From: Salinibacterium sp. G-O1
Lineage (GTDB): Bacteria > Actinomycetota > Actinomycetes > Actinomycetales > Microbacteriaceae
NCBI RefSeq assembly: GCF_030063305.1
Contig: NZ_JASISV010000001.1
Location: 1 to 64,000 of the forward strand
Length of the DNA: 64,000 nucleotides
Direction of reading: 5' to 3'
Position 1 is the first letter of the stretch; each line of letters begins with the position of its first letter. A program made the translations under genes and the position numbers. Positions 8,468-24,521 of the stretch are shown one piece after another. The notes beneath the pieces were generated by a model. It did not search any database, was not told the origin of the DNA, and saw only the letters and a list, made by a program, of their open reading frames with translations.

Positions 8468-8496
8468 CTTGCCACCATACAAGCCGTGCCAGCGCG

Positions 8497-9255: not shown

Positions 9256-9270
9256 GTGAGTTTCCATTTC

Positions 9271-10446: not shown

Positions 10447-12008
10447 GCGCCGAAATACTTGCGCTGGTACCCCCGCCAGGTGATCGCCCATCGTTCTGGG
10501 TCATCGAGGTCGTCGTGGTGGATGTGGTGCACGGTCTGGTTGTGCGGTGCGGTGCGGACAATCTCCGGGGTCTCTCGGGCCTCCCGCGCCACCTCGGCGA
10601 GCACGGCCGCGTACTCATCGAGTTCGGCCATGGAGTACGACTCCGTCGGTTCCAGAGTGAAAGGCTGCGGAACGATGTAGGGGTGGTGGCTGGTCCAGTA
10701 GTGCATCCCGAAGTCGGAGGCGCGCACGCCAATTTCCTCGGAGGTGATGCCCGTCTCCTGGAAAAGTTCCTCCCAGGAGTAGCGCACCTGTTCGATCCGG
10801 CGTCGGCCCGTGGCATACGGGGCGGAAGCCCCCGGAATTTCAAGGATCTTCTTCATCAGATAGTTGTTGTTCAACACTGCGGTCTCGGCGACGGCGCGCA
10901 GCCCTTCGCCTCCGAGGGCCATGATCCACGAATAGGCGCGCACCAGGTTCGGGATGACGCCGTAGAACGGGGCAACCTTCCCGATGGAGTTCGGACGGTC
11001 AGAGTCCAGAGCGAAATGATCGCCGTTCTTCGTGATGACCGGGCCGGGCAGGAACGGCTCCAGTTGCTCCGAGACTGCGTTGGCCCCGCTGCCGGGCCCG
11101 CCACAGGCGTGGGGGGTGCCGAAGGTCTTGTGGATATTGAAGTGGCAAACATCGAATCCGGCGTCCCTGGCACGAGTGATTCCGAGGATGCCGTTGGCGT
11201 TCGCCTGATCGTACGACGCGAGGGCCCCCACGGAATGTGCCAACGAGACCCATTCGGTCACCCCCGGGTTGAAGATTCCCGTGTCCTCCGGATTCGTGAT
11301 CATGATCGCCGCGGTCTGCGGGCCGATGACGGCTCGGAGGGCTTCCACATCGGGATATCCGTCTGCGTCGGGGTAAAGGGTGATGACCTTGTAACCGGCG
11401 GCCTTCGCGGTGGCGGCGTTGGACGGATGGCTGAAGATCGTGGTTACCACCTCGGTGCGCTGATCACCTTCACCGTTTGCCTCGTGGAACGCGCGGATCA
11501 TCGAGATGTTGGTCCAGATCGCGGTCGAACCGCCACTCGTATGCAGGGAGACGCTGTGCATTCCGGAGATCTCGGCGAGCATCCTTTCGAGGTTCCAGAT
11601 CAGGCCGAGTACCCCCTGCACATCGGCTTCGTTCTGCATCGGGTGCAGGTCTACCAGCTTCGTCGTGCGAATCAGGGCGTCGTTCACTTTGGGGGCGTAC
11701 TTCATCGTGCAGGTGCCCTGACCCACGTCGACGTTCAGGTCTGCGCCCAGGTTTTCCTGGCTGAGGCGAAGGTAGTGACGAAGTACGCGCATCTGGGCCA
11801 TCTCCGGCAGGGCTGGCGGGCTTGCCCGTCTCATGCCCGCTGGCAGATCGGCGAGAACGTCGCCCACCGCATCGCGGATGCCGGATTCGACCTGCGAAAC
11901 CAGAACCCCGCGCTCGCCCGGATTGGTCAGCTCGAAAATGATGGGCTCATCCCACCTGGCCTGGTGAAAACGGCGCTGGGCTGGCTTGGGTGCGATGGGG
12001 AGGCTCAT
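10443..12008 (-). CDS. gcvPB: Glycine decarboxylase P-protein, subunit 2
   Basis: A 521-aa PLP-dependent subunit of the split (two-subunit) P-protein. The PLP lysine lies in NIHKTFGTPHACGGPGSGA, and HTSGGSTAIWTNISM and ITNPEDTGIFNPG are conserved. With GcvPA it decarboxylates glycine and transfers the aminomethyl group to the lipoyl arm of GcvH. It overlaps gcvPA by 4 bases (ATGA). No gcvH, gcvT or lpd is present here. The operon also carries an NAD-kinase-like gene, an SDR and an aldo/keto reductase and is preceded by the sugar-type operator at 13439, which is unusual for glycine cleavage. Confidence 0.94.
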   Translation of the reverse strand: MSLPIAPKPAQRRFHQARWDEPIIFELTNPGERGVLVSQVESGIRDAVGDVLADLPAGMRRASPPALPEMAQMRVLRHYLRLSQENLGADLNVDVGQGTCTMKYAPKVNDALIRTTKLVDLHPMQNEADVQGVLGLIWNLERMLAEISGMHSVSLHTSGGSTAIWTNISMIRAFHEANGEGDQRTEVVTTIFSHPSNAATAKAAGYKVITLYPDADGYPDVEALRAVIGPQTAAIMITNPEDTGIFNPGVTEWVSLAHSVGALASYDQANANGILGITRARDAGFDVCHFNIHKTFGTPHACGGPGSGANAVSEQLEPFLPGPVITKNGDHFALDSDRPNSIGKVAPFYGVIPNLVRAYSWIMALGGEGLRAVAETAVLNNNYLMKKILEIPGASAPYATGRRRIEQVRYSWEELFQETGITSEEIGVRASDFGMHYWTSHHPYIVPQPFTLEPTESYSMAELDEYAAVLAEVAREARETPEIVRTAPHNQTVHHIHHDDLDDPERWAITWRGYQRKYFGA

Positions 12009-13405
12009 GCGCTCTTCTCCTGGGTGGTGCTGGACGCTGTGGCAGACGCGATGGCATCCGTCAGACGATCGATGTCATGTTGGGTCGTCATCTCGGTGAC
12101 GCACACGAGCAGCTCGTACTCCCCGACCACGACACCGGGGTCGATCGCGAGCGGTCGAAGCCGATCGACAACGGTGCGGCTGTCGACGCCGGTGGCGCTG
12201 AGATCGATGACGAATTCGCGCAGGTGCAGAGCGTTGTCGTTGAGGGTCACGCCGGCGAGCGCGCCGAGCCGTGCCTGCGCGTAGGTGGTGCGCGCAAGAA
12301 TGGTCTCGGCCAGCTCGGCCATGCCCTGCGGTCCCATCAGGGCAAGGTAGACGCCGGCAGCAATACCCCACAGGGCTGCTGCGGTTCCGACCCACTCCTT
12401 TCCCTCCTCGCGAAGCGCGAAGGAGGTGCGGTCGTAGGCGACATCCCCGAATCCGTATTCACCGGCGACATCGGTCGACGCGAGCCCGAACAGCCGCGAC
12501 GGCATCTCCATTACGAACCTGGGATCGTCGTGAACGGCAATGAATCCCCCGTGGGCCCCACCGAACCACTGATGCAATCCCAATGCCTGAATGTCTCCGC
12601 ACACGATGTCGGCGCCCTGGTCAGCGGGCGGCGTCAGTGCGCCGTAACCGATGGGGTCGGTACCGACAACGAGAATCGCACCGACCGCGTGGGCTGCGTC
12701 GGCAAGTTGCCGGATGGCGGTCTCTACGGCTCCGGTGCAGCTCGGGGTTTCCACCCAGACGGCTGCGGTGTCCGCGCCCAACAACGCGATGATCGCCTCG
12801 ACGTGCGCGGTGCCGTCGATCGTGGGCACGAACGTGAGGTCGAGGTTCGGCCGCACAAAGTCGTCGACGCGTGACACCTTGTCTGGCAGCACGTCGCTGC
12901 ACACCACCACGCCGCGACGCCCCGTGATGCGTCCCGCCATCGACAACGCCGTTGCCGTGGCCTGAAACCCGTCGTAGGTCGGCACGTTCACGACCTCCAT
13001 GTTCAGCAGCTCCGCCATGAGCGACTGGTACTGGAACAACGCCTGGAACCGACCGTGGTCTTCGTAGGGTTCGCCAGCGTATGCAGTCAGGAACTCACTG
13101 CGATTGATCACCTCGTCAACGACGGCGGGAACGAAGTGGTTGTATGTGCCGAAGCCAAGGAAGCTCAGTCTTTCCTTGGTGGAGACATTGTGATTCAACT
13201 CGCCTTCGACGTGGCGAACCAGGTCTTGCTCGGCCACCAGCGGCGCCGGCAGGTCGAGCGGGCGGTTCAGTCGAAGGCTGGCAGGGATGTCCGCGTAGAA
13301 ATCCTCGGTGCTGCCTGCCCCGACGGCCGCAAGCATCGCGGCCTTCGTCGCGGGAGCACTATTCGGGATGTACGGATGGACAAAGGAATCTGGCACGTGG
13401 TCCAA
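12005..13405 (-). CDS. gcvPA: Glycine decarboxylase P-protein, subunit 1
   Basis: A 466-aa first subunit of the split glycine decarboxylase. Recognisable segments are SFLGFGTYNHFVPAVVDEVI, TAYAGEPYEDHGRFQALFQY, NVPTYDGFQATATALSMA and GDIQALGLHQWFGGAHGGF. It heads a five-gene operon. Possible starts are TTG at 13405 and GTG at 13396, the latter with GGGG about 9 bases upstream. A promoter TTGACC-17-TAGCTT (13458-13486, minus strand) with operator 13439-13455 directly downstream precedes it. No glycine riboswitch fits in the roughly 50-base leader. The pairing with sugar genes suggests a dedicated P-protein rather than the housekeeping copy. Confidence 0.94.
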   Translation of the reverse strand: MDHVPDSFVHPYIPNSAPATKAAMLAAVGAGSTEDFYADIPASLRLNRPLDLPAPLVAEQDLVRHVEGELNHNVSTKERLSFLGFGTYNHFVPAVVDEVINRSEFLTAYAGEPYEDHGRFQALFQYQSLMAELLNMEVVNVPTYDGFQATATALSMAGRITGRRGVVVCSDVLPDKVSRVDDFVRPNLDLTFVPTIDGTAHVEAIIALLGADTAAVWVETPSCTGAVETAIRQLADAAHAVGAILVVGTDPIGYGALTPPADQGADIVCGDIQALGLHQWFGGAHGGFIAVHDDPRFVMEMPSRLFGLASTDVAGEYGFGDVAYDRTSFALREEGKEWVGTAAALWGIAAGVYLALMGPQGMAELAETILARTTYAQARLGALAGVTLNDNALHLREFVIDLSATGVDSRTVVDRLRPLAIDPGVVVGEYELLVCVTEMTTQHDIDRLTDAIASATASSTTQEKSA

Positions 13406-13438
13406 CCCCGGTTTCTGTCGTCGGTTCAGTACTGAGTA

Positions 13439-13455
13439 CTGTATTTTGTATACAG
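13439..13455. promoter_or_regulatory. GntR-type operator, gcvPA operon
   Basis: CTGTATTTTGTATACAG is an inverted repeat (CTGTAT, 5-base spacer, ATACAG), one mismatch from the site at 15568. It lies just downstream of a TTGACC-17-TAGCTT promoter that points to gcvPA, and between that gene and the GH42 stop codon. This position fits repression. Confidence 0.75.
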
Positions 13456-13460
13456 AAAAG

Positions 13461-15524
13461 CTATAACGAAGTCGGCGTCAGGTCAAGGGTGCGATGAGCG
13501 AGCACCGCGACGCCGAATCCTGGCAGTCGGATGTCAGCGCCGATGGGGATATCCGCACCGCACAGAAGGTCGACCGCTGCCGCCGGCGCTTGAACCAGGA
13601 TCTCGTCGGCCCCGTGGTTTAGGAAGAACGTGAACGACTCGTCGTCACCGACTCGCGTGACCACCTCCAGCAGCCGATTGGGGTGCTGGCGGCGATCGAC
13701 GCTCGCAGCATCGAGGATCTGGCCGAGCACCGCCTCGAGCCCGTTCTCCCGCAGCGCAGCGCTGAGGTACCACGCCGCCCCGGCCCCCGAGGCGTTGCGC
13801 ACGATAGCTGCCCGTCCATCCAGCACCCCCGTCGAGTAGGTCGCGACGACCTCTGCGGAGTCGGCGACGTCGATCCATTCACTCCAGGTCTCGATCTCGT
13901 GATCGGAGCCGGCGAGCGTGATCGCCCCGGTGTCACCATCGGCCAACGGCCACCACTCGTCGACCTCGACACCGAGCAGGTTCCGGAGCGGACCGGGAGC
14001 CCCACCGGGGTGGATCTTCTCCGTCGGGTCTACGACCCCGCTGAACGGACCGACCACCAGGTGACCGCCGCCCTCCACAAACGACGTGAGAGCCTCGGCC
14101 TGCTCCTGGGTGACGACATAGAGATTCGGCACGACCACGACGTCATATCGGGCGAACGGACTCTCGAATCCGCCGCCGGCCTTCACTACGTCGACCGTCT
14201 GACCCAGCGCAAAGAGGGCACCATGCCAGGCTCTGGCCTGCTCCAGCCAGTCCAGTCGCTGTGAGGGAAGGGAATCATTTGCGGAGCTGCCCCACCACGA
14301 GTCCCAGTCGACGACCAGGGCGACTCGCGCCGACACCCTGCTGCCGCGTACAGCGTCTATCTTCTTCAGCTCGGCGCCGAGCGCCGCGGTCTCGGCAAAG
14401 GTGCGGCTCTTTTCGCCACGGTGTCCGAGCATCGCCGAATGGAATTTTTCGGGCCCGAACCTGGCCTGCCTCCACTGGAAGAACATCGCGCCGTCCGAAC
14501 CGTGCGCGATCGCCTGATAGCTGTCGAGACGCATCCGACCGGGCGCCTTGGGCACATTGACGTCACGCCAACTGACCGCGCTCGGGGCCTGCTCGAGCAG
14601 CAACCAGGGCTGGCCGCTCTTTAATGAGCGCATGAGCCCATAGTTGAGCGCGGCTGGCACGTGGGCCAGTGGATCCCCGGGGTCGGGATAGGCATCGTCG
14701 GTCACTACATCTTCGACCGCGGCGAAATCCCAATAGTCGAGCTCCTTGAAGAGGCTCATGAAGTTCGTGGTGACCGGAATGTCGGGGGTCACTCGTCGTA
14801 GGACGTCTATTTCCGACTGGAACAGCTCAAGCAGCGCGTCAGATCCGAATCGCTCAAAATCGAGCAACTGCGAGGGGTTGATGGGTCCCATCGATGTGCG
14901 GGGTGGCTCGATGTGATCGAACGACAGGTAGTGCTGACCCCAGCAACTTGTGCCCCAGGCCTCATTGAGGCCGTCGATGTCGCCGTACCGGCTCTCGAGC
15001 CAGCGACGGAAGTGCGCACCGGAGACAGGGCACCAGCATCGCGGCACGTGGTCTCCGTACTCGTTCGAGATGTGCCACAGAGCGAGCGCCGGGTGTTCTG
15101 CGTAGCGCACCGCCATGGCTTCGGTGAGCCGGAGGGCATGGGAACGGAAGACCGGTGAACTCGGGCAGTACGCCTGACGGGAACCGAACTCCAGGCGCTG
15201 GCCGTGAACATTGTGCGGCAAGATCTCGGGATGCTCCCGAATGAGCCACGCGGGCGGCGTCGCCGTGGCGGTAGCCAGATCCACCTTGATCCCGTGCTCC
15301 CACAGCAGATTGATGACCCGGTCAAGCCAGTCGAAATCGTAGGTTCCCTGAGTTTTCTCGATGCGCGGCCAGGAGAATACCGGCAGCGACACAAGGTTTA
15401 CACCCGCCTCGCGCATGAGTCTGGCATCCTCGACCCACACCTCTTCTGGCCACTGATCAGGGTTGTAGTCGCCACCGTAAGCAAGTGCGTCGAGACGGAT
15501 GGGTCGGGATGGCGTCGTTGTCAC
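13461..15524 (-). CDS. Beta-galactosidase, glycoside hydrolase family 42
   Basis: A 687-aa GH42 enzyme: TIM barrel opening with LAYGGDYNPDQWPEEVW, acid/base Glu in the ALWHISNEYG segment, nucleophile Glu in WLLLEQAPSAVSW, then the trimerisation and beta-sandwich domains. GH42 enzymes hydrolyse beta-galactosides and occur inside the cell, acting on imported oligosaccharides; no signal peptide is present. It starts with GTG, diverges from the FadR-type GntR gene and shares its operator at 15568-15584. With two nearby ABC importers it forms the core of a glycoside-utilisation block. Confidence 0.94.
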   Translation of the reverse strand: MTTTPSRPIRLDALAYGGDYNPDQWPEEVWVEDARLMREAGVNLVSLPVFSWPRIEKTQGTYDFDWLDRVINLLWEHGIKVDLATATATPPAWLIREHPEILPHNVHGQRLEFGSRQAYCPSSPVFRSHALRLTEAMAVRYAEHPALALWHISNEYGDHVPRCWCPVSGAHFRRWLESRYGDIDGLNEAWGTSCWGQHYLSFDHIEPPRTSMGPINPSQLLDFERFGSDALLELFQSEIDVLRRVTPDIPVTTNFMSLFKELDYWDFAAVEDVVTDDAYPDPGDPLAHVPAALNYGLMRSLKSGQPWLLLEQAPSAVSWRDVNVPKAPGRMRLDSYQAIAHGSDGAMFFQWRQARFGPEKFHSAMLGHRGEKSRTFAETAALGAELKKIDAVRGSRVSARVALVVDWDSWWGSSANDSLPSQRLDWLEQARAWHGALFALGQTVDVVKAGGGFESPFARYDVVVVPNLYVVTQEQAEALTSFVEGGGHLVVGPFSGVVDPTEKIHPGGAPGPLRNLLGVEVDEWWPLADGDTGAITLAGSDHEIETWSEWIDVADSAEVVATYSTGVLDGRAAIVRNASGAGAAWYLSAALRENGLEAVLGQILDAASVDRRQHPNRLLEVVTRVGDDESFTFFLNHGADEILVQAPAAAVDLLCGADIPIGADIRLPGFGVAVLAHRTLDLTPTSL

Positions 15525-15567
15525 ATCAACTCACTTTCACAGGGAGGGGTGCCGAAAGGCGAATACT

Positions 15568-15584
15568 CTGTATTCTGTATACAG
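15568..15584. promoter_or_regulatory. GntR-type operator, GH42/gntR intergenic
   Basis: CTGTATTCTGTATACAG is the best copy of the shared operator, with inverted CTGTAT/ATACAG arms. The core TGTATACA, common to all four sites, fits the FadR-family pattern of GT and AC half-sites. It lies between divergent GH42 and gntR, so autoregulation is likely. Confidence 0.78.
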
Positions 15585-15656
15585 GCCGTAGTCGAATCAT
15601 GCTACTCCAAGCGCGACCTAAACTTATGCTCACTACGCACACCCTCGGAGGGCCCC

Positions 15657-16325
15657 TTGGCAATCGAACGCAAAACGCTCCGCTCCCAAGTGCGCGACGA
15701 GCTTCTCGCCCGCATGCGCTCGGGTGAGGCCCAACCCGGTGAGGGGATCAACGAGGTTCAGCTCGCCTCAGAACTGGGCGTGAGCCGTACGCCACTGCGC
15801 GAGGCACTGATTGGACTTGAGAGCGAAGGTCAGATCACCAGCGAGAACGGCAAGGGTTTTCGCTTCGTCAAGCTGAGCGCGTCAGAGTTCGAGGAACTTG
15901 GGCCCATCATGGCGGCCCTGGAGAGCCTCGCAATCGAGCTGACTCCCGCTGATGTGATGAGAAGCATTGGGCGTGAGCTGAAGGTGCTGGCAGACGACTT
16001 CAGTCAAAACATCGCCGAGCACGGCGTCATCGCCCAGCGAGATGATGAATGGCACAGCGTCATGCTCAGCGAGTGCCCCAATGCGCGTCTCCTCGAGACG
16101 ATCGAAGGGGTGCGCGCCCTGTTCCACCGGTATGAGTCACTGCTCGTCCCCAATGAGGTCATGGTCGATCGCGTGGCTGCCGAACACCTGGAGATCGCCG
16201 ATGCTCTCATTGCCGGAGACATCCCGCTCGCCCAGAAGGCGCTGAAGGCCAACTGGATCAATGGCGCGCGGCGAATCCTTGCGAACGCCACCAGCGAGCA
16301 CATCGCACTCCAGGAGCGCAGCTAA
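15657..16325 (+). CDS. FadR-type GntR regulator of the sugar/gcvP block
   Basis: A 222-aa regulator. The N-terminal winged helix reads RSQVRDELLARMRSGEAQPG followed by INEVQLASELGVSRTPLREA, a classic FadR-subfamily sequence. The C-terminal FCD-like all-helical ligand domain contains DDEWHSVMLSECPNARLLET. The likely start is TTG at 15657 with GGAGGG four bases before it; upstream in-frame sequence has no family similarity. It diverges from GH42 across the best operator copy. Its effector is unknown; a sugar acid, sugar phosphate or glycerate-type molecule would fit FCD domains (inference). Confidence 0.9.
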   Translation: MAIERKTLRSQVRDELLARMRSGEAQPGEGINEVQLASELGVSRTPLREALIGLESEGQITSENGKGFRFVKLSASEFEELGPIMAALESLAIELTPADVMRSIGRELKVLADDFSQNIAEHGVIAQRDDEWHSVMLSECPNARLLETIEGVRALFHRYESLLVPNEVMVDRVAAEHLEIADALIAGDIPLAQKALKANWINGARRILANATSEHIALQERS

Positions 16326-17170
16326 CCCTTGACGGCCCCGCCCAGCAGACCCGCGATGAACTGGCGCTGGAAGATCAGAAACAGTATGAGCAAGGGCAGG
16401 GTTGCCAGTAGTGAGCCGAGCATGAGCCCGGAGTAGTCCACCCGCGACAAACCGATCATCGTATTCAGTGCCACCGGCACCGTGTAGTTGTCTTCCGTAT
16501 TGAGCATGAGCAGCGGCCAGATGAACGAGTTCCACTGCGTCATGAACGTGTAGATGATCAGGGCCGCGATCTGCGGCTTCGCCACAGGGAGCACGATGCG
16601 ATAGAAGGTGCGAAATTCGTTGGCGCCGTCAATCCGCGCGGACTCGATGAGCGAATCCGGAAAGTCCAGAAACGATTGCCGCATGAGGAAAATCCCGAAG
16701 GCACTCGCGACAAACGGCAAAATGACGGCCTGGTAGCTGTCGATCCACCCGATGCTCGCCATCATCTGGAACAACGGGACCAACAGCACCTGCATCGGGA
16801 TCATCATCGTGACCAGGATGAGACCGAAGGCAACGTTGCGCCCTCGAAATGAAAATTTCGCCAGTCCATAGCCGGCCATGATGCTCACGATCGAGCTGAA
16901 CGCCGTGTAAACGATGGCCACGGCAAGACTGTTGATCATCACTCGCCCAAAATTGACGTCCTCCTGCAGTCTGGCCAGGTTGGTCAGCAACTCGCCACCC
17001 GGCAGCACGGGTAGAGGCGTGCCGAACAGGTCGGATGTGCGATGGGTTGACGCGACGACCATCCAGAGGAACGGGATGAGGCTGATGATCGAGCCGACGA
17101 GCAGCACAAGGTAGATCGGCGCGTGCCGAAGCGAAGCGCCCAGCCTCGTCGCATCCTGTGAACGTGTCAT
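16322..17170 (-). CDS. Sugar ABC importer A, permease 2 (MalG-like)
   Basis: A 282-aa inner-membrane permease with six predicted hydrophobic segments, starting YLVLLVGSIISLIPFLWMVV. The conserved ATPase-contact loop is DFPDSLIESARIDGANEFRT. It belongs to the CUT1 group of carbohydrate importers. It overlaps permease 1 by 4 bases (ATGA) and ends convergently with the gntR gene. No ATPase gene is in the window, so a shared MsiK-type ATPase encoded elsewhere probably energises all three importers here, as is usual in actinobacteria (inference). Confidence 0.92.
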   Translation of the reverse strand: MTRSQDATRLGASLRHAPIYLVLLVGSIISLIPFLWMVVASTHRTSDLFGTPLPVLPGGELLTNLARLQEDVNFGRVMINSLAVAIVYTAFSSIVSIMAGYGLAKFSFRGRNVAFGLILVTMMIPMQVLLVPLFQMMASIGWIDSYQAVILPFVASAFGIFLMRQSFLDFPDSLIESARIDGANEFRTFYRIVLPVAKPQIAALIIYTFMTQWNSFIWPLLMLNTEDNYTVPVALNTMIGLSRVDYSGLMLGSLLATLPLLILFLIFQRQFIAGLLGGAVKG

Positions 17171-18090
17171 GGTTTCTCCCTCGTGAGTCTGAATTGGACG
17201 AAGGCGATCACGGCAGTCAGCGCCACGATCATCCACCCAATGGCGGACGCGTAGCCGAAGTCGAACTGGCGGAAGCCGACCTTGTAGAGGTAGAGCACGG
17301 GCGTGAGGGTCGCGTCGCTGGGCCCACCCCCGGTGAGAATGAAGTTCTCGTCGAACAGCTGAAGTGCGCCAATCGTCGAGGTAATGCTCGTGAAAAGAAG
17401 CACGGGGCGCAGTTGTGGGATGACGATTCTGAAAAAGATGGCCCTCCGCCCTGCGCCGTCGAGTCGCGCGGCCTCGTACAACTCCTCTGGGATGGCCTGA
17501 AGGCCGGCGAGAATGATGACCATGTTGTAGCCGGTCCACCGCCAGGTGATTGACGCGATGAGGGCAACGCGCGCCCAGGTCTCATTGTTGAGCCAATCGA
17601 CCGGAGCAATACCCAGCAGACCGATCAGCTGGTTCACGGCCCCGCCGTCGGTGGCCAGCATCACCCGGAACACCACCGAATACGCCACAAGGGTCGTCAC
17701 CGCGGGGAGGAAGTGCAGCACACGGAAGCCGCCCCTGAACCTCAGCCAGCTTTGGTTGAGCAGGTACGCGAGCACCACCGCCAGGCTCATCATGAGGGGC
17801 ACCTGAACGACGAGCAATATTCCGGCGTTGAAGAGACTCTTGCCGATGAGGGGATCGAGGAAGAGGCGCGCGTACTGGTCGAGACCGACGAAAACCGTTT
17901 CGCCTCCGACGGTTTTCGTCATGCTCTGCCAGAACGACGATGCCAGTGGATAGGCGAAAAAGATGGCGAAGAGGGCGAGGGCGGGGAGGGCGAAGTAGAG
18001 CCCAGGGCGCTGCAGCTTATGGCCGAGCGCCCTGGGGTTCCTCCGTGCAGCTCCCGCAGGTGACAGTGTCACCCGGGATGGGAGCGACAC
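17167..18090 (-). CDS. Sugar ABC importer A, permease 1 (MalF-like)
   Basis: A roughly 307-aa CUT1 permease with six membrane segments and the coupling-loop motif IPEELYEAARLDGAGRRAIF. A poorly conserved N-terminal tail of about 30 residues precedes the first membrane helix (YFALPALALFAIFFAYPL). I place the start at GTG 18090, one base after the binding-protein stop codon; an in-frame ATG at 18144 would overlap that gene by 53 bases and cannot be excluded. It works with the adjacent MalG-like permease and the lipoprotein at 18092-19402. Confidence 0.9.
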   Translation of the reverse strand: MSLPSRVTLSPAGAARRNPRALGHKLQRPGLYFALPALALFAIFFAYPLASSFWQSMTKTVGGETVFVGLDQYARLFLDPLIGKSLFNAGILLVVQVPLMMSLAVVLAYLLNQSWLRFRGGFRVLHFLPAVTTLVAYSVVFRVMLATDGGAVNQLIGLLGIAPVDWLNNETWARVALIASITWRWTGYNMVIILAGLQAIPEELYEAARLDGAGRRAIFFRIVIPQLRPVLLFTSITSTIGALQLFDENFILTGGGPSDATLTPVLYLYKVGFRQFDFGYASAIGWMIVALTAVIAFVQFRLTREKP

Positions 18091-18091
18091 G

Positions 18092-19402
18092 TCAGTTCGC
18101 GATTTTTCGACCGGTCGCGTTGGCGATCTGGTTCGCGACATCATCGAGGGTCTTCTGGGGATCGGCGCCGTTGATCACCGAGGCGACGACCGCATTGGCC
18201 ACCATGTCCTGGGCTTTCGCGTTGTCGCTCGTGTAGCTGATCGACGGTATTTTCGCCGTTTCGGTGGCAAACAGCTCGTAAACCTTCTCGCCGGAGAAGT
18301 AGGGGTCTGGCTGCTGGAAATAGGGGTCGGCAAGCGCGGGCAGGTACGAGGGGAATAACCCTTCTGTCTTCATCATCGAGACCTGGTTCGTGGTGTCGGC
18401 CAGTGTCCACGCTACGAACGACGCGGCAAGGTTCGGGTTCTTCGCCTGCGACGGAATGGCGAGGCCCGATCCCCCGTTGTTCGACGTGCGGGCACCGCTC
18501 GCGGTAAATCCGGGGAGCTCGGTCACGCCGAACTTCTGCGCCAGTTCCGGCATCTCACCGGTGAGTGTTCCGGTCCACCAGACCGCTTCGGGGTGCACGG
18601 CGGAGTCGCCATCCTTCGTCGCGGTGACGCGACCATCCCATCCCTTGACGTTTTTGATGAGTCCCTTGTCGTTCATCCCCTTGAGCAGGGTCAGCGCCTT
18701 CACCGCCCGGGGCGACGAGACGGTGATCTCACCGTCCGAGTTGAAGAGCCCCTCCCCCTGCTGCTGAAGCATCATCGAGAATGTTGCGCCCGACGACACA
18801 TCGATCGACATGAGGGTGTGACCCGTCGTCGACTTGATCTTCTCGCCAGCGACCACCAGATCGTCCCACGTGCTCAGACTCGCGGGGTCGATCCCGGCTG
18901 CGGCCAGGTAGTCGGACCTGTAAAACAGTCCGACAGTTCCGGAATCCCAGGGGGCGACGAGGATCTGGCCATCGCCGTTTGATGAGGCGGACCACTTCGA
19001 GGGATCGAAGTCGGCCTGCTTATCCCCAATCACCGGCGTGAGGTCAGCGAATCCTTTCGGGAATTCGGTGATGTAGCCGGGAGCGCGATCGGTTTCGATG
19101 GAGACGATGTCGGGGAGGCCGCTTCCCGCCTTGAATCCCACCGACAGCTTGTCGTACGCGTTGTCGTATCCAACGTCCACGACCGTGATCTTCGTGCCGG
19201 GGTGGCTCGATTCGTACTCAGATCCGAGTCGCTTCAATGCTGTTGCAGCGACATCCCACGACCAGACTGTGATCTCGCCAGATACGTCAGCCTGTGGATC
19301 GATGGGCGCCGCCGGCGCGCCAGCCGACCCGCCCGCACAACCTGCGAGCAGCGCCGCTATAGCCATCGCGGCAATCGGCACGGGCAATTTTCTGGATGGC
19401 AA
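18092..19402 (-). CDS. Sugar ABC importer A, substrate-binding lipoprotein
   Basis: A 436-aa extracellular solute-binding protein (family 1). The N-terminal signal peptide PIAAMAIAALLAGC has a lipobox (LLAGC), so it is anchored to the membrane by lipid. The mature part shows the MalE-like features DVSGEITVWSWD and VAPWDSGTVGLFYRSDYL. The start is TTG at 19402 with GAAGGAG five bases upstream. It is the first gene of importer A, and its promoter overlaps the operator at 19426-19442. The ligand is unknown but probably a glycoside handled by GH42 or the GH63-like enzyme. Confidence 0.91.
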   Translation of the reverse strand: MPSRKLPVPIAAMAIAALLAGCAGGSAGAPAAPIDPQADVSGEITVWSWDVAATALKRLGSEYESSHPGTKITVVDVGYDNAYDKLSVGFKAGSGLPDIVSIETDRAPGYITEFPKGFADLTPVIGDKQADFDPSKWSASSNGDGQILVAPWDSGTVGLFYRSDYLAAAGIDPASLSTWDDLVVAGEKIKSTTGHTLMSIDVSSGATFSMMLQQQGEGLFNSDGEITVSSPRAVKALTLLKGMNDKGLIKNVKGWDGRVTATKDGDSAVHPEAVWWTGTLTGEMPELAQKFGVTELPGFTASGARTSNNGGSGLAIPSQAKNPNLAASFVAWTLADTTNQVSMMKTEGLFPSYLPALADPYFQQPDPYFSGEKVYELFATETAKIPSISYTSDNAKAQDMVANAVVASVINGADPQKTLDDVANQIANATGRKIAN

Positions 19403-19425
19403 GGTGACTCCTTCGTCTGTGTGCT

Positions 19426-19442
19426 CAGAATATTGTATACAG
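19426..19442. promoter_or_regulatory. GntR-type operator, importer A
   Basis: CAGAATATTGTATACAG keeps the core TGTATACAG half of the operator while the other half is degenerate (four mismatches to the 15568 site). It overlaps the -10 of a TTGACG-17-TACTGT promoter (19439-19467, minus strand) that points to importer A. Confidence 0.65.
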
Positions 19443-19498
19443 TACACGGACGGCAGAATGACGTCAATGTGGTCCTACGCCTGTCGGATAGCGAGGAG

Positions 19499-21253
19499 TC
19501 AGGGCGAGAGAGTCACGGCGAGATCGATGAACAGCGCGGCGCTCCAGCCGAACGACGTCGTCGCGGTGTGAGCCTTGTGGCCGGTGCTGGGGTTGAAGTA
19601 TTCGCTCGGGCCTCGACCGTGGATGACCAGGGCTACGGTCTGCTCGGCGAGCCGGGTCGCCTCTGCGGGGTATCCGGATGACCGCAGCCCTTCCACCAGC
19701 AATGCGTTGATGTTCACCCACACCGGTCCGCGCCACATCCGCTCGTCAGAGAAGTCCGGGTCGTTCGCCGCAACGGTTGGCACCCCCCAGGTCGTTCCGA
19801 ATTGAGCGGGGTCGCTCAGCGCTGCCACCAGAAGCTCTGCACGCACGGCCGGCAGCTCACCCGTCAGCAGGGGAAGAAGGCTGACCGCAGTGTACGACCG
19901 CACGATTCGCTCGCCGGCGTGGGGCAGGAATCGACCGGTGGCCGCGTCCCACATCGCCAGCAGTCCGGCCAGCGTCGCATCGGCCCGGCGGCCACATGCC
20001 TCAGCGCGCTCGGCGTTGCCCTGTTCGGTGAAGTGGCGCGCAAGTTCACGATCCTGAAGCACGAGGTACGCGCCGAGGTCTGGCGATGCCAGCGGGAACG
20101 GACCGTCAAAGATGGGACTGTCGTCGAGCCCGGATGAATATGGGTGGCCATACTCGGGCATGCCGTCGCCGTCCAGGTCTGAGTGCACGAACCACCAGTC
20201 CTGCGAGCGCGCGATGGTGTCCCAGGCGGCGTTCGCCCAGGATGCGACGGCGGTGCGATCCTGGGCAGGAGTCGACTCCAGCACCTTGCGAAGGGCCCAG
20301 CCCGCGAGCGGCGGCTTCGTGAGTGGAACCGGAGCGGCCGGGTCGGCGATGCTCGACCCGTGTGCGCGCAACACCTCGAGATCGTGTGGCGGCAGGTCGT
20401 CGCTGGATGCCAGCACACCCTCGTCGTGGACGACATCCGGCAGTTGACCCGTGGCGGTGGGGAATCGGAAGGCAATGTCGAGCTGCTCACGCGCCAGCTC
20501 CGGATCGCCGTGGCGAAGTCCAATCGCGATGAAGTACGCGTCCCACTGCCACAGGCCGACGTAGCCGATCTTGGAGGGGACGACGGCCCGTGCGCCATCC
20601 AGTCCGGGCAATTCGACGATGTTTGCGCCCAGGACCCACCAGCACAGAGCGGTCATCGGTTGGAGGTCTTCTCGAACCCGGGGGCAACGATCGAACCATT
20701 CAGCCCAGACCCTGGCGGTCGAACGCAGGTGGTCGTCGTGCTGGAATTCGCCTGCTTCGAGGATCGGTGAGATCGTGACGGACCCGTCGGATGCCGCCTG
20801 GAGCACGACCGAGGCCCCTGGGAGCAGAGGTATCGACCGCCGCGTTCGGTCGCGCAGCTCGAGGTGAACCTCAGCGCTCGCTCGGCCGTCAGCAGGGCCA
20901 GGCTTGCGCACTCCGATGCTGAGAGCGTCTGCTCCCGCGAAGGTCAGTGTGACCTGTCCGCCGCCGAACTCGATTCGGTGCGGAAGCACCCGCGTGATGT
21001 CGAGTGGTTCGCCATCCTTGTCGCACACGCTCAGGCGCTCGATGGCGATGCAGTCGGAGAGGCTGCGCTCGTACTCGGCGCGGCTCACTCGCAGCTCTCG
21101 CCCGCCTTCTGCCGGGGAATCCGGATGTCGCTGCACCAGTATTCGGGAACGCGGGAGGGTGAAGGGGGCCGCCACCAGGTCCAACTGACTGCTGACCATC
21201 TCGATGAGCGCATCGGTGTGCGCTCGGTGCCCCGCGCCGGCGGTGCCCATCAT
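19499..21253 (-). CDS. GH63-like (alpha/alpha)6-barrel glycosidase
   Basis: A 584-aa cytoplasmic glycoside hydrolase of the trehalase/GH63 clan. Family features are the LWQWDAYFIAIGLRHG barrel segment, GHPYSSGLDDSPIFDG (Asp as likely general acid, near 20115-20135) and HGRGPSEYFNPSTG (Glu as likely base). GH63-type bacterial enzymes include alpha-glucosidases and mannosyl- or glucosylglycerate hydrolases. The ATG at 21253 overlaps the permease stop codon, so it is the fourth gene of importer B operon and presumably acts on what that importer brings in. No signal peptide. Exact specificity is unknown. Confidence 0.85.
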   Translation of the reverse strand: MMGTAGAGHRAHTDALIEMVSSQLDLVAAPFTLPRSRILVQRHPDSPAEGGRELRVSRAEYERSLSDCIAIERLSVCDKDGEPLDITRVLPHRIEFGGGQVTLTFAGADALSIGVRKPGPADGRASAEVHLELRDRTRRSIPLLPGASVVLQAASDGSVTISPILEAGEFQHDDHLRSTARVWAEWFDRCPRVREDLQPMTALCWWVLGANIVELPGLDGARAVVPSKIGYVGLWQWDAYFIAIGLRHGDPELAREQLDIAFRFPTATGQLPDVVHDEGVLASSDDLPPHDLEVLRAHGSSIADPAAPVPLTKPPLAGWALRKVLESTPAQDRTAVASWANAAWDTIARSQDWWFVHSDLDGDGMPEYGHPYSSGLDDSPIFDGPFPLASPDLGAYLVLQDRELARHFTEQGNAERAEACGRRADATLAGLLAMWDAATGRFLPHAGERIVRSYTAVSLLPLLTGELPAVRAELLVAALSDPAQFGTTWGVPTVAANDPDFSDERMWRGPVWVNINALLVEGLRSSGYPAEATRLAEQTVALVIHGRGPSEYFNPSTGHKAHTATTSFGWSAALFIDLAVTLSP

Positions 21254-22086
21254 CTGCCGCCCAGTCCGGACGCGGCCATGCTGCTGATGATGCGACGCTG
21301 TCCGATGACGAAAGCGACCAGCATCGGAATGGTGGACACGGCCGAGGCGGCCATCACCAACCCATAGTTGATGGAGCCGAACTGCCCGCGGAACGATGAG
21401 AGCAGTAGCGGAACCGTGAACAGGTCGGGCGTGTTCAGGAGCACCAGTGGGAACAGGAAGGCATTCCACACATCGAGGGCCACGATGATGCTCAGTGCGC
21501 CAAGCCCCGGGCGCAGGTTTGGAAGGATGACGCTCCAGAACGTCCGCCAGCGCCCGGCTCCATCGACCAGCGCCGCTTCCTCCAGTTCCTTGGGCAGCGA
21601 CAGCACGAACTGTCGCATCAGGAAGACGGCGAAAGGATTCACCATCATGGCAGGGACGATCAGGGAGAGGTGTGAATCAACCCAGCCGAGGCTGCTCATG
21701 AGCAGGTAAAACGGAATCAGTGTGACCTGCTTGGGAATCATCTGTGTCGCCAGGAACAAGATGAACAGGAACCGGCTGCCCCGGAACTTGATCCGCGCAA
21801 AGGCATAGCCGGCCATCGATGCCGTCAGCAGGGTGCCGACCACGGCCAGAACCGTGATGTAGACGCTGTTCATGTACGCCTGGGCAAACGGCGCCGCATT
21901 CCAGGCATCGATGTAGTTGTTGAGCGTCCAGGGGTTCGGCCAGAAACTGAGCGGGTCCTGCAGTAACTGCGGGAGCGTCTTCAGTGAGGTCAGCAGCATC
22001 CAGATGAACGGGAACACCATCGCGAGAGCCGCGACCCCCAGTGCCGTGTGGATCAGCAACGTGCGTGTGCGCTGGGTGAGAGTCAT
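21250..22086 (-). CDS. Sugar ABC importer B, permease 2 (MalG-like)
   Basis: A 278-aa CUT1 permease with six membrane spans (first: LGVAALAMVFPFIWMLLTSL) and the coupling loop LPKELEEAALVDGAGRWRTF. The start overlaps the upstream permease stop by 4 bases, and its own stop overlaps the glycosidase start. These overlaps show a tightly coupled binding protein-permease-permease-glycosidase operon. Confidence 0.92.
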   Translation of the reverse strand: MTLTQRTRTLLIHTALGVAALAMVFPFIWMLLTSLKTLPQLLQDPLSFWPNPWTLNNYIDAWNAAPFAQAYMNSVYITVLAVVGTLLTASMAGYAFARIKFRGSRFLFILFLATQMIPKQVTLIPFYLLMSSLGWVDSHLSLIVPAMMVNPFAVFLMRQFVLSLPKELEEAALVDGAGRWRTFWSVILPNLRPGLGALSIIVALDVWNAFLFPLVLLNTPDLFTVPLLLSSFRGQFGSINYGLVMAASAVSTIPMLVAFVIGQRRIISSMAASGLGGR

Positions 22087-23045
22087 TCGGCACCATCCTC
22101 GTAGTGAACGACCTTCTTTTGCACGCCGAACTGGATGAACGTGATGACGAGAGTCAGCAGCAGCAGGATGACCGCCGCCGCGCTCGATGGGCCGAATTCG
22201 AAGCGACCGAAGCCGAGATCGTAGATGTGGTAAACGATGGTGCGCGTGGCGTTGTCCGGGCCAGCGTTTGCCGTGAGCACGAACACAACGTCGAAAGTCT
22301 GCAGCGAGCTGATGAACGCAATCACGGACGAGAAGAAGATGATGGGCGAGAGCAGCGGCAGCCGAATGCTCCAGAAAATACCGAGGGCGCCCGCGCCATC
22401 GAGTTTCGCGGCCTCAATCACGGAGGGTGAAATGTTTTGCAGACCCGCGAGAAAGATGATGACGTTCAGTCCCATCGACGCCCAGATGGAAACAATGCAC
22501 ACCGAGATGAGGGCGAGACCCGGATCGCCGAGCCAGTCGGGCGGTGCGATTCCGAAGATTTTCGAGATGCTCGAACTGAGCACGCCGTCCGCCCGCAGCA
22601 TCTGCTGCCAGATCATCGCAACCGCAACCGTGCTGGTGACCACGGGAGCGAAGAACAGCACCAGGTAGAGGGTGCGGGTCTTCAGCTTCTCCAACGCCAC
22701 GGCAATGACCACCGAGAACCCGAGCCCGATCGGCACGGTGATGGCGGCGATGAGCAGAGTGTTCAGGATGCTGCGCAGCAGCAGCGGATCCTGAAGCTGG
22801 GAAATGAAGTTGTCGAATCCCACCCAGGTGAGTTCGGACAAGCCATCCCACGACGCGAAGGCGAGCACCATGCTGCCCAGGAAGGGGACGAGCACGAAGA
22901 TGGCCATCCCGATCAGCTGTGGGCCGACGAAAACGTAGCCCCAACGTCGGTCACGCCGGCGCCAGCCGGACTCCTTGCGGGGTCCGGCTGGCGGCGGGGA
23001 TGCGAGTCGTGGCTGCTCAACGAGTGAGCTGGGCACGATAGTCAT
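22083..23045 (-). CDS. Sugar ABC importer B, permease 1 (MalF-like)
   Basis: A 320-aa CUT1 permease. After a proline-rich cytoplasmic tail (residues 1-35) come six membrane spans, beginning GYVFVGPQLIGMAIFVLVPF. The coupling-loop motif is ISPSVIEAAKLDGAGALGIF. It lies 9 bp downstream of the binding protein and overlaps permease 2 by 4 bases. No ATPase gene accompanies it. Confidence 0.92.
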   Translation of the reverse strand: MTIVPSSLVEQPRLASPPPAGPRKESGWRRRDRRWGYVFVGPQLIGMAIFVLVPFLGSMVLAFASWDGLSELTWVGFDNFISQLQDPLLLRSILNTLLIAAITVPIGLGFSVVIAVALEKLKTRTLYLVLFFAPVVTSTVAVAMIWQQMLRADGVLSSSISKIFGIAPPDWLGDPGLALISVCIVSIWASMGLNVIIFLAGLQNISPSVIEAAKLDGAGALGIFWSIRLPLLSPIIFFSSVIAFISSLQTFDVVFVLTANAGPDNATRTIVYHIYDLGFGRFEFGPSSAAAVILLLLTLVITFIQFGVQKKVVHYEDGAE

Positions 23046-23054
23046 CCGATCGTG

Positions 23055-24347
23055 CTAGCTGCGCGACTTGCTGATGATGAGATCGGCGACCTCATCGAGC
23101 GCGGTCTGCGCATCGTCGTTGCCCTGGTACAGCTTGAGCATCAGGTCGCTGACGTCACCAGACAGTCCCGGAACCCTGGCTTCCTCCGGCGGCGCCGCGA
23201 AGCCAATGTCCCTCATGTCGAGGAAGGTCTGGGCGTGGGCGGGGTAGCCGTCCTCGAGCACAACGTCATCCGCTCCCTTGATCGACGGAACGGCGTTTCC
23301 GCCGCCGGAGAGTCGGAAGGTCTGGCCCTCGGCGCTCAGGAATTCGGTCCAGAAGGTGAACGCGGCATCCTTCGCCTTGGTGCCTGCGTTGATGGCGAGG
23401 TACGACGCGGCGACTCCGGTGGGAGCTGGAGTTCCGCTCGGCGTGGGCCACGCCACAATGTCGTAGTCGTCCTGCACTCCGGCCGAGGTGACGGTGCCGA
23501 TCGTGTAGCGGCCCTGCGAGAAGAAGCCAGCCTTGTGGGTGACGAAGACGCTGTCGGCGCCCGCTCCTTCGGGCAGGGTGTCTGCGACAACGAATGTGCC
23601 GTCCTGGAAGTTTCTTGCCATGACATCCATCGCCTCGACGCTCGTCACGTCAGTGTTGGCGTCGAACGTTCCCGACGTGTCAAAGGCGGAGCCGCCCTGC
23701 GCCGAGATCCAGCTGTAGTGGGTTGCCCAGTAGTTCCAGAACATCGAGCCTGTCAGCCCCGCCTGCTTGAGGGCAGTGTTCATCTCGAGGTACTTCGCGG
23801 TGGTCCATTCGCCGGCCGCGGCGAGGGTTGCGGGGTCTTCGGTAATTCCTGCAGCCTGCAGCGCGGCCTTGTCGTACCAGAGCACGTCGGGGTTCGCATC
23901 GTTGGGGGCGGCGTAGATGTCGTCGTCGGTCTGGGCGGCACCGAACAGACCGGGGAAGAAGTCATCAGGCTTGGTCTGGCTCTCACCGGATTCCATGAGA
24001 GCTGTCAGGGGCATGAGTCGATTGGATGCCACGAACTGGCCGATCTTGTCATCCCCCACATAGAACACGTCGGGGGCGGTGTTCGAGGTGAGCTGGGCGA
24101 GCAGTTTCGAGTGGTAGTCGCTGTAGGAGGCGACGGGCTGCAGCTTCACCGAGATGTCCGGGTGCCGCTTCATGAATTCCTGGTTGAAATCCTCAAAACG
24201 CGTTAGCTCTTCCGGGGTGCCCCAGGTGGACCAAACAACGGTATTCGGGTCGGATGCGGACGATGTGCCGCTGCACGCGGCCAGTGAGACCGCGATGGCG
24301 GTGGCGGACAGGACGGCGATGAGGCGTCTCGACGATGAGATGCGCAT
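23055..24347 (-). CDS. Sugar ABC importer B, substrate-binding lipoprotein
   Basis: A 430-aa family-1 solute-binding lipoprotein. The signal peptide is LIAVLSATAIAVSLAAC with a lipobox at LAAC. The mature part begins with Ser-rich SGTSSAS and has the MalE-like WSTWGTPEELTRFEDFNQEF. It is the first gene of the importer B/GH63-like operon. AAGAGG precedes the ATG. The promoter TTGACA-17-CAGAAT (24384-24412, minus strand) overlaps the operator at 24380-24396, putting this importer under the same GntR control as GH42 and gcvPA. Confidence 0.92.
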   Translation of the reverse strand: MRISSSRRLIAVLSATAIAVSLAACSGTSSASDPNTVVWSTWGTPEELTRFEDFNQEFMKRHPDISVKLQPVASYSDYHSKLLAQLTSNTAPDVFYVGDDKIGQFVASNRLMPLTALMESGESQTKPDDFFPGLFGAAQTDDDIYAAPNDANPDVLWYDKAALQAAGITEDPATLAAAGEWTTAKYLEMNTALKQAGLTGSMFWNYWATHYSWISAQGGSAFDTSGTFDANTDVTSVEAMDVMARNFQDGTFVVADTLPEGAGADSVFVTHKAGFFSQGRYTIGTVTSAGVQDDYDIVAWPTPSGTPAPTGVAASYLAINAGTKAKDAAFTFWTEFLSAEGQTFRLSGGGNAVPSIKGADDVVLEDGYPAHAQTFLDMRDIGFAAPPEEARVPGLSGDVSDLMLKLYQGNDDAQTALDEVADLIISKSRS

Positions 24348-24379
24348 GCTGGAACCTCTTTCGGTGATCAGAAGATAGA

Positions 24380-24396
24380 TTGTATTCTGTATACAT
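24380..24396. promoter_or_regulatory. GntR-type operator, importer B
   Basis: TTGTATTCTGTATACAT differs from the 15568 operator only at its two end bases. It covers the -10 region of a TTGACA-17-CAGAAT promoter directed to the importer B operon, as expected for a repressor site. Confidence 0.75.
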
Positions 24397-24521
24397 CATT
24401 CACTTCTGTCAAGAGGAAAGTGCGCTGGATTCCCTGCTCGAGCCTGCTTAGGGCACAGTCGTCAGTTTTATGGCGCACCGAGAGAGCGCACGACACCAGT
24501 GGATCGTGCGGCGATCCCTCG

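What the first reader, a model, noticed from the sequence alone, without database searches (positions are those of the whole stretch)
13439..24396. One GntR-type operator in four promoters links sugar uptake, two glycosidases and a glycine decarboxylase operon
Seen directly: CTGTATTYTGTATACAG-type sites at 13439-13455, 15568-15584, 19426-19442 and 24380-24396, all keeping the core TGTATACA. Three of them sit on or just downstream of the -10 of recognisable TTGACN-17-hexamer promoters. The FadR-type regulator gene (15657-16325) adjoins the best copy. FadR-family regulators bind GT/AC palindromes of this kind. A sugar-type repressor controlling gcvPA/gcvPB is, as far as I know, not described.
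Basis: partly seen in the sequence, partly recalled or inferred. Interest (0 to 1): 0.75.

Follow-up and report, generated by a model that had tools for sequence, protein, structure and literature searches.

The report
Repressor regulon joins sugar and GcvP-like genes
One local repressor very probably switches a sugar-uptake and sugar-cutting gene cluster on and off together with a pair of genes labelled glycine decarboxylase, and those two genes look like a distinct enzyme family whose real job is still unknown.

Summary
In detail: the four TGTATACA sites are the only ones in the window (0.02 expected), and the longer motif has one stray hit elsewhere in the genome. The regulator-operator link holds. 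A perfect TGTATTCTGTATACA lies between the GntR/FCD gene and GH42 in 20 of 21 distinct Microbacteriaceae relatives, 30-33 nt after TTGAC in those 20; the window's gcvPA promoter has that geometry (32 nt), its GH42 promoter does not. A related repressor, Atu1419, binds ATGTATACAT (PMC7797058, passages). In Microbacteriaceae relatives gcvPA follows GH42 without its own site; in Actinomadura/Streptomyces, with another gene order, the site lies directly before gcvPA in 7 of 7 loci. Control of gcvPA is thus supported. 'Glycine decarboxylase' is doubtful: the pair travels with an AcoX-like kinase, belongs to its own clade and replaces the active-site motif YTPYQPE[IV]SQG by YAGEPYEDHG; the genome's ordinary gcvHP locus is elsewhere, with a glycine riboswitch. 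Glycine turnover with the shared GcvH is not excluded. The regulon is of an ordinary type; the unassigned AcoX-GcvP-like module is the interesting part.

The parts
7652..8482 (-). aldo/keto reductase, presumed last gene of the gcvPA operon
   Evidence: PF00248
8497..9267 (-). short-chain dehydrogenase; 74-90% identical in Microbacteriaceae clusters, best copies 48-56% in archaeal modules
9271..10491 (-). AcoX-like small-molecule kinase family protein (annotated elsewhere as ATP-NAD kinase)
   Evidence: PF01513 and PF20143 over cut-off; no relative among solved structures by sequence
10446..12008 (-). GcvPB-like subunit of the AcoX-linked type; PLP lysine kept (HKTF)
   Evidence: NF003346 564.7 bits against cut-off 441
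12005..13405 (-). GcvPA-like subunit of the AcoX-linked type, motif TAYAGEPYEDHG; start codon uncertain
   Evidence: NF001696 432.8 bits against cut-off 364
13439..13455 (-). operator of the gcvPA promoter (TTGACC-17-TAGCTT-TTC-operator), without counterpart in the Microbacteriaceae relatives seen
13461..15524 (-). GH42 beta-galactosidase-family enzyme
   Evidence: PF02449, PF08532, PF08533
15568..15584 (.). conserved operator between GH42 and the regulator gene
15657..16325 (+). GntR/FCD (VanR-like) regulator, start TTG
   Evidence: PF00392, PF07729; fold match to PmiR, TM0439 and Atu1419
16322..17170 (-). ABC sugar permease 1b (start placed by homology; named from its place, not scanned)
17167..18144 (-). 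ABC sugar permease 1a (named from its place, not scanned)
18092..19404 (-). solute-binding protein 1 (start placed by eye)
   Evidence: PF01547, PF13416 (on the longer frame 18092-19447)
19426..19442 (-). weaker operator upstream of solute-binding protein 1; counterparts in L068 and L069 and a like copy in L066
19499..21250 (-). GH63/MGH1-like glycoside hydrolase (start placed by homology)
   Evidence: PF22422, PF03200 (on the longer frame 19499-21469)
21250..22086 (-). ABC sugar permease 2b (named from its place, not scanned)
22083..23045 (-). ABC sugar permease 2a (named from its place, not scanned)
23055..24347 (-). solute-binding protein 2
   Evidence: PF01547
24380..24396 (-). operator in the solute-binding protein 2 promoter, over the spacer and -10 of TTGACA-17-CAGAAT

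Best explanation
A local, self-linked repressor of the GntR/FCD (VanR-like) group binds CTGTATTCTGTATACAG, a TGTATACA palindrome with an extra CTGTAT half-site, at four promoters of one catabolic cluster: regulator/GH42, gcvPA, solute-binding protein 1 and solute-binding protein 2. At GH42 in relatives, and at gcvPA here, the operator begins just after the -10 and would cover the start of transcription; at solute-binding protein 2 it covers the spacer and -10. Bound repressor blocks RNA polymerase; a small molecule made from the imported glycoside releases it (inferred, effector unknown). The downstream genes GcvPA-GcvPB-AcoX-SDR form a conserved module. Its GcvP pair keeps the PLP lysine but has a changed substrate site, so it probably works on something other than free glycine, or with another acceptor. 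Shown here: sites, their conservation, promoter geometry, gene linkage, clade and motif change. Inferred: binding, repression, inducer, operon reading, enzyme reaction.
For: Sites confined to the cluster. Perfect 15-mer at regulator/GH42 in 20 of 21 distinct relatives. In 19 Microbacteriaceae genomes with the module, hits with up to 2 mismatches lie within 14 kb of the regulator site, apart from strays in G206 (2) and G090 (1) and a pair on another contig of G376 that I could not place. TTGAC at 30-33 nt in 20 of 20, and at 32 nt before the window's gcvPA. Another gene order in Actinomadura/Streptomyces with the site 36-107 nt before the estimated gcvPA start in 7 of 7, and a 2-mismatch variant at GntR/GH42 in 4 of 5 Streptosporangiaceae. 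DNA contacts of Atu1419 (Glu34, Arg45, Thr46, Arg49; PMC7797058 passages) match E33, R44, T45, R48, invariant in 15 of 15 regulators (matched by motif position, no pairwise alignment made), and Atu1419 binds ATGTATACAT. GcvP-like pair: own side of a branch, support 100, length 1.25; motif change; no glycine riboswitch in the window but a tandem one at the gcvHP locus.
Against: No binding or expression data. The 13439 site has no counterpart in Microbacteriaceae relatives. Four of 13 other genomes with a close regulator (62-67% identity) have no AcoX hit and no motif nearby, so the ancestral role may be different. L077 has its regulator copies 6 kb from GH42 and only a variant site. No solute-binding protein 1 site within 3 mismatches in L089. 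NCBIfam equivalog cut-offs for GcvPA and GcvPB are both passed, and GcvH is present in 46 of 46 module genomes, so glycine decarboxylation with a shared H-protein is not excluded. In L119 an AcoX gene lies beside a canonical-type GcvP pair.
Confidence: 0.8

Rival explanations
1. The gcvPA/gcvPB pair is an ordinary two-subunit glycine decarboxylase that uses the genome's single GcvH to burn glycine released from the imported compound; the repressor simply couples it to uptake.
For: Both subunits pass NCBIfam equivalog cut-offs; PLP lysine kept; GcvH present in 46 of 46 genomes with the module; some other modules lie beside amino-acid, peptide or methyltransferase (MTTB) genes.
Against: Active-site motif YTPYQPE[IV]SQG replaced by YAGEPYEDHG or relatives, while 13 of 16 canonical GcvP copies of module-bearing genomes keep it. 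Separate clade. No gcvT/gcvH listed beside it in seven annotated plasmid contexts (that gene table is incomplete), whereas three annotated canonical pairs sit in gcvT-gcvH-gcvPA-gcvPB runs. GcvH is so common (over cut-off in 10 of 14 control genomes) that its presence says little.
Confidence: 0.3
2. The regulator is an activator or a dual regulator rather than a repressor.
For: The operator lies about 80-113 nt before the regulator's start codon in relatives, upstream of a conserved TA-rich box that may be its -10 (by eye).
Against: At GH42, gcvPA and solute-binding protein 2 the site overlaps the presumed start region or the -10, which suits a block.
Confidence: 0.12
3. The 13439 site is a fortuitous internal match and gcvPA is only read through from GH42.
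For: No counterpart in the GH42-gcvPA gaps of Microbacteriaceae relatives.
Against: Exact core, 16 of 17 letters of CTGTATTCTGTATACAG, and the same TTGAC-to-operator distance as the conserved GH42 promoter; 4 cores in 64 kb against 0.02 expected.
Confidence: 0.1

Closest known systems
Atu1419 (VanR-type FCD repressor of Agrobacterium fabrum; PDB 6za3/6z74)
   Same: Same fold, same DNA-contact residues by motif, shown operator ATGTATACAT with the same core TGTATACA, palindromes over -10 or between -35 and -10, also beside its own gene (PMC7797058, passages)
   Different: Sequence only distantly similar (E 1.2e-6); controls hydroxycinnamate genes; bound zinc in its structures, whereas here the third His of the FCD metal site is Asn199 in 15 of 15 regulators (site positions taken from the HypR/TM0439 numbers in PMC6608401)
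FadR-subfamily regulons of Suvorova et al. 2015 (PMC4494728, passages)
   Same: GT-N2-AC palindrome; an additional half-site near the palindrome; single site in a divergent gap
   Different: No regulon of this content was seen in the passages read
Glycine cleavage P-protein, two-subunit type (1wyt; Priestia, Haloterrigena and Sphingomonas plasmid copies)
   Same: Sequence family, subunit split, PLP lysine
   Different: Motif YTPYQPE[IV]SQG changed, human Y164 position lost, no GcvH nearby, AcoX partner, separate clade
AcoX of acetoin operons
   Same: Member of the AcoX-like kinase family (family name recalled; Pfam gives NAD kinase domains); partner of a multi-subunit catabolic enzyme
   Different: Partner here is GcvP-like, not acetoin dehydrogenase. 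[quoted passage not shown]

Membership tests
GntR/FCD (FadR subfamily) regulator | GntR winged helix plus FCD domain | tested here: met
   PF00392 57.7 bits (cut-off 27), PF07729 48.2 bits (cut-off 24.3); fold
GntR/FCD (FadR subfamily) regulator | GT-Nx-AC palindromic operator near its own gene | tested here: met
   TGTATACA sites; consensus from PMC4494728 passages. Sequence evidence only
GntR/FCD (FadR subfamily) regulator | DNA-contact residues E/R/T/R as in Atu1419 | tested here: met
   E33, R44, T45, R48 invariant in 15 of 15, matched by motif position to the residues named in PMC7797058
GntR/FCD (FadR subfamily) regulator | three-histidine metal site of the FCD domain | tested here: not met
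   H133 and H177 kept, third position Asn199 in 15 of 15 by spacing against HypR/TM0439 numbers; PMC6608401 says the majority, not all, of FCD domains have these histidines
GntR/FCD (FadR subfamily) regulator | binding and effector release | not testable with these tools
   needs EMSA
Glycine decarboxylase (GcvP, P-protein) | family models GcvPA and GcvPB | tested here: met
   both over cut-off
Glycine decarboxylase (GcvP, P-protein) | PLP lysine in HKTF | tested here: met
   HKTF in 69 of 69 hits closest to the window GcvPB
Glycine decarboxylase (GcvP, P-protein) | active-site motif YTPYQPE[IV]SQG (human Y161, Y164 listed as active site, PMC7259800) | tested here: not met
   window reads YAGEPYEDHG. 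1 of 69 GcvPA hits has the strict pattern (L186, canonical type; L119 and L185 in that set are also of canonical type); 13 of 16 canonical GcvP have it
Glycine decarboxylase (GcvP, P-protein) | gcvH nearby or glycine riboswitch | tested here: not met
   only GcvH of the genome at 903 kb; no riboswitch in the window. gcvT was not searched for
Glycine decarboxylase (GcvP, P-protein) | glycine turnover | not testable with these tools
   needs enzyme assay
NAD kinase | NAD kinase domains | tested here: inconclusive
   PF01513 and PF20143 over cut-off, GGDG invariant in 29 of 29, but no solved structure matched at E <= 0.001 by sequence or fold

The most novel reading that the evidence does not exclude
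The AcoX-linked GcvPA/GcvPB pair is an unrecognised PLP enzyme, misnamed glycine dehydrogenase in public annotation, found from Microbacteriaceae to Heimdallarchaeota and a halophilic archaeon. It processes an amino- or oxo-acid other than glycine, with AcoX as an obligate partner. In actinobacteria it has been built into a beta-galactosidase/glycoside-uptake pathway under one FCD repressor, so the aglycone of an imported glycoside would be its substrate.
Probability: 0.45. Interest if true: 0.75.

Novelty: new variant of a known kind. Interest (0 to 1): 0.52.

Why it matters
The regulon ties a GcvP-like enzyme to glycoside uptake by control and by gene order in three actinobacterial arrangements, which gives a substrate class to test. 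It also flags a likely recurrent mis-annotation: AcoX-linked GcvPA/GcvPB copies are called glycine dehydrogenase although their active-site motif is different. And it offers a second system, beside acetoin dehydrogenase, in which to find out what AcoX does.

Tried and rejected
Chance: rejected. Separate gcvPA operator conserved in Microbacteriaceae: looked for in the GH42-gcvPA gaps and not found. Sigma-70 consensus scan as proof of promoters: uninformative, 1 found against 1.9 in shuffles; replaced by footprinting. Test for a module genome without GcvH: none, 46 of 46 have it, so H-protein independence could not be shown. Substrate from neighbours: contexts differ too much (sugar ABC plus GH2/GH42/GH63; polar amino-acid ABC plus racemase; dipeptide ABC plus aldehyde dehydrogenase; MTTB plus aminotransferase; APC permease, AMP-binding and deacylase genes). 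A glycosylated amino acid such as the sugar-bearing hydroxylysine of collagen was considered; speculation only. AcoX fold search: no match at E <= 0.001; weak partial matches to diacylglycerol kinases and unrelated folds. Papers (open-access library only): no paper joining AcoX with GcvP, or a GntR regulator with control of gcvPA, was recognised. One search listed 20 of 33 papers, none of the 20 with AcoX; one search listed 20 of 23 and searches gave short listings, most of them not opened (one search's three papers with 'ATP-NAD kinase' and 'glycine dehydrogenase' were not opened); one search gave one paper, PMC11298487, read in passages and unrelated; one search gave none; one search gave two, not opened. 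Searches were for background; PMC9676059 was read in passages.
Full report
WHAT IS THERE. The window is contig 1, 1-64000, of a 3,143,343-base genome. Its family holds Microbacteriaceae: the 73,555-base contig of G280 has the length of a Microbacterium sp. K24 contig, and their gcvPB genes are identical by 15-mers. Four TGTATACA cores occur in 64 kb, at 13447, 15576, 19434 and 24388; 0.02 are expected. The longer motif with up to 2 mismatches has one stray hit elsewhere in the genome. Among 27 genomes of the genus (own included), the only matches with 0 or 1 mismatch are three of the four sites in the window's own genome; the rest, 19426 included, are 2-mismatch hits.

THE GENES. Reading down from the sites on the minus strand: gcvPA, gcvPB, an AcoX-like kinase, a short-chain dehydrogenase and an aldo/keto reductase after 13439; GH42 after 15568; solute-binding protein 1 and two permeases after 19426; solute-binding protein 2, two permeases and a GH63/MGH1-like hydrolase after 24380. 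The GntR/FCD gene runs the other way from 15657 (for the domains of ten proteins; the permeases were not scanned and are named from their place and reading).

THE OPERATOR IN RELATIVES. The regulator has relatives at E <= 1e-30 in 13 other of 349 genomes drawn from the family, and the AcoX-like gene at E <= 1e-20 in 12 others. Nine genomes have both, 5.1-5.6 kb apart in eight and 11 kb apart in G090. The perfect 15-mer TGTATTCTGTATACA stands between regulator and GH42 in 20 of 21; L077 lacks it. A second site stands 48-94 nt before the estimated start of solute-binding protein 2 in the window and in the five Microbacteriaceae relatives whose stretch reaches that promoter (L067, L072, L074, L075, L076). 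A weaker site lies before solute-binding protein 1 in L068 and L069, with a like copy in L066; in L089, where that gene was also hit, none is found within 3 mismatches. In a whole-genome pattern search of 30 genomes 24 had hits. In the 19 Microbacteriaceae genomes with the module the hits lie within 14 kb of the regulator site, apart from strays in G206 (2) and G090 (1) and a pair on another contig of G376 that I could not place; what lies under the second hits was checked only in the fetched stretches. Strays also occur in G293 (2), which lacks the module, and in G381 (1), an Actinomadura genome whose own operator differs too much for this pattern.

PROMOTER GEOMETRY. At GH42, TTGAC lies 30-33 nt before the operator core in 20 of 20 relatives with the site, with a hexamer TANNNT at spacing 17 in 17 of 20. 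The window's GH42 promoter has no TTGAC there, but its gcvPA promoter has TTGACC-17-TAGCTT-TTC-TGTATACA, distance 32. TTGAC occurs at 4.7e-4 per base in these loci. The 13439 site therefore looks like a genuine promoter-operator gained in this lineage; no counterpart is seen in the relatives' GH42-gcvPA gaps, where gcvPA follows GH42 closely and is presumably co-transcribed.

A SECOND AND THIRD GENE ORDER. In seven Actinomadura/Streptomyces loci the order is (GH42, permeases, binding protein) divergent from gcvPA-gcvPB-AcoX-SDR-GntR, and TGTATACA lies 36-107 nt before the estimated gcvPA start in 7 of 7, which are all the loci of this order (the binding protein was confirmed by Pfam in L103 only). 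In five Streptosporangiaceae loci GntR is divergent from one run GH42-gcvPA-gcvPB-AcoX-SDR-binding protein-permeases-GH63 (GH63 not seen in L141, where the contig ends), with TGAATTCTG[CA]ATACA in 4 of 5 and nothing within 3 mismatches in L099. So the link between the regulator and the GcvP-like genes survives rearrangement.

THE REGULATOR. Its predicted structure (mean pLDDT 84.8) matches FCD regulators PmiR, TM0439 and Atu1419. For Atu1419, which I read in passages (PMC7797058), others showed binding to ATGTATACAT over or near -10 boxes and contacts by Glu34, Arg45, Thr46 and Arg49; the residues at the matching motif positions, E33, R44, T45 and R48, are invariant in 15 of 15 regulators here. 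PMC4494728 (passages) describes 2-nt GT-AC spacings and extra half-sites near the palindrome in this subfamily, which is the shape of CTGTATTCTGTATACAG.

RESULTS AGAINST A TIDY PICTURE. Four of the 13 other genomes with a close regulator (G043, G154, G253, G293) have no AcoX hit and no operator near the gene; in three of them the regulator is divergent from an SDR gene. L077 has two regulator copies 6 kb from GH42 and only a variant site. L101 (Propionibacteriaceae) has module, GH63 and transporter but neither regulator nor TGTATACA in its stretch.

THE GCVP-LIKE PAIR. The genome has one GcvH, next to a single-chain GcvP at 903-906 kb, with a tandem glycine riboswitch upstream, and a second AcoX-gcvPA-gcvPB set at 435-439 kb. 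The window's pair passes both NCBIfam cut-offs and keeps HKTF. In the alignments to solved P-proteins the stretch YTPYQPE[IV]SQG, which holds human Y161 and Y164 (listed as active site in PMC7259800, passages; numbering mapped by me through the PLP lysine), is replaced by YAGEPYEDHG. Over 69 hits to the window GcvPA, the strict canonical pattern occurs once (L186); L119 and L185 in that set are also of canonical type. Of 21 stretches around GcvH genes of module-bearing genomes (L084 and the 20), 16 gave a canonical GcvP, and 13 of these 16 have the strict pattern. A tree of 93 GcvPB rows puts all 67 AcoX-linked DHG-type rows, plus L198, L106 and L127, on one side of a branch of length 1.25 with support 100 (quick method, long branches flagged, L119 next to it). 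L127 reads YAGEPYDDAG; L106's GcvPA hit is short. Seven annotated plasmid contexts of the type list no gcvT or gcvH, with the caution that this gene table is incomplete; in one of them (L198) AcoX is not adjacent but lies elsewhere on the plasmid. Canonical two-subunit pairs in Priestia, Sphingomonas and Haloterrigena plasmids sit with gcvT and gcvH; L195 (Deinococcus) is a canonical-like pair without them. GcvH is present in 46 of 46 module genomes tested, so dependence on a shared H-protein is not excluded.

ACOX. No solved relative by sequence and no fold match at E <= 0.001 (model mean pLDDT 88.4). [quoted passage not shown] A partner role for a multi-subunit enzyme is therefore plausible here too; this is inference.

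VERDICT. The gcv link is real, but 'glycine decarboxylase' should be read as 'AcoX-linked GcvP-like enzyme of unknown substrate'. The enzyme module, not the repressor, carries the interest.

Noticed in passing
G000 contig 1, 435409-438867 (L083 8413-12453): A second AcoX-gcvPA-gcvPB set in the same genome, of the GTPSSDHG sub-type, after a gene that looks like a class III aminotransferase and before one that looks like a 2Fe-2S/FAD oxidoreductase (these two read by eye, not scanned).
   Followed up: partly
L084 3890-4095: Tandem glycine riboswitch upstream of the genome's ordinary gcvHP locus; a guanidine-III riboswitch lies close by at 3033-3098 on the other strand.
   Followed up: no
L070, L071, L073: Close relatives of the regulator stand divergent from a very similar SDR gene without the cluster and without the TGTATACA operator.
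   Followed up: partly
window 7652-24403: The cluster's G+C is slightly lower than the rest of the window (63.5 against 65.3%), and the regulator was not found at E <= 1e-30 in any same-genus genome among the 349 searched (seven are shown in the listing), which suggests acquisition from outside the genus.
   Followed up: partly
window 13427-13441: An inverted repeat CAGTACTGAGTACTG abuts and overlaps the 13439 operator; it may be an extra regulator box or a weak hairpin.
   Followed up: no
L077 5666-7174, L136 10001-11440, L100 10001-11128: The match to the AcoX-like gene is split in L077 and L136 (open frame without stops in L077), and the matched stretch in L100 holds one stop; whether any copy is broken was not settled.
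   Followed up: no
L101 and L098: Propionibacteriaceae and Chloroflexi clusters carry the same module with a GH2 beta-galactosidase in place of GH42 and no regulator in the stretch seen.
   Followed up: partly
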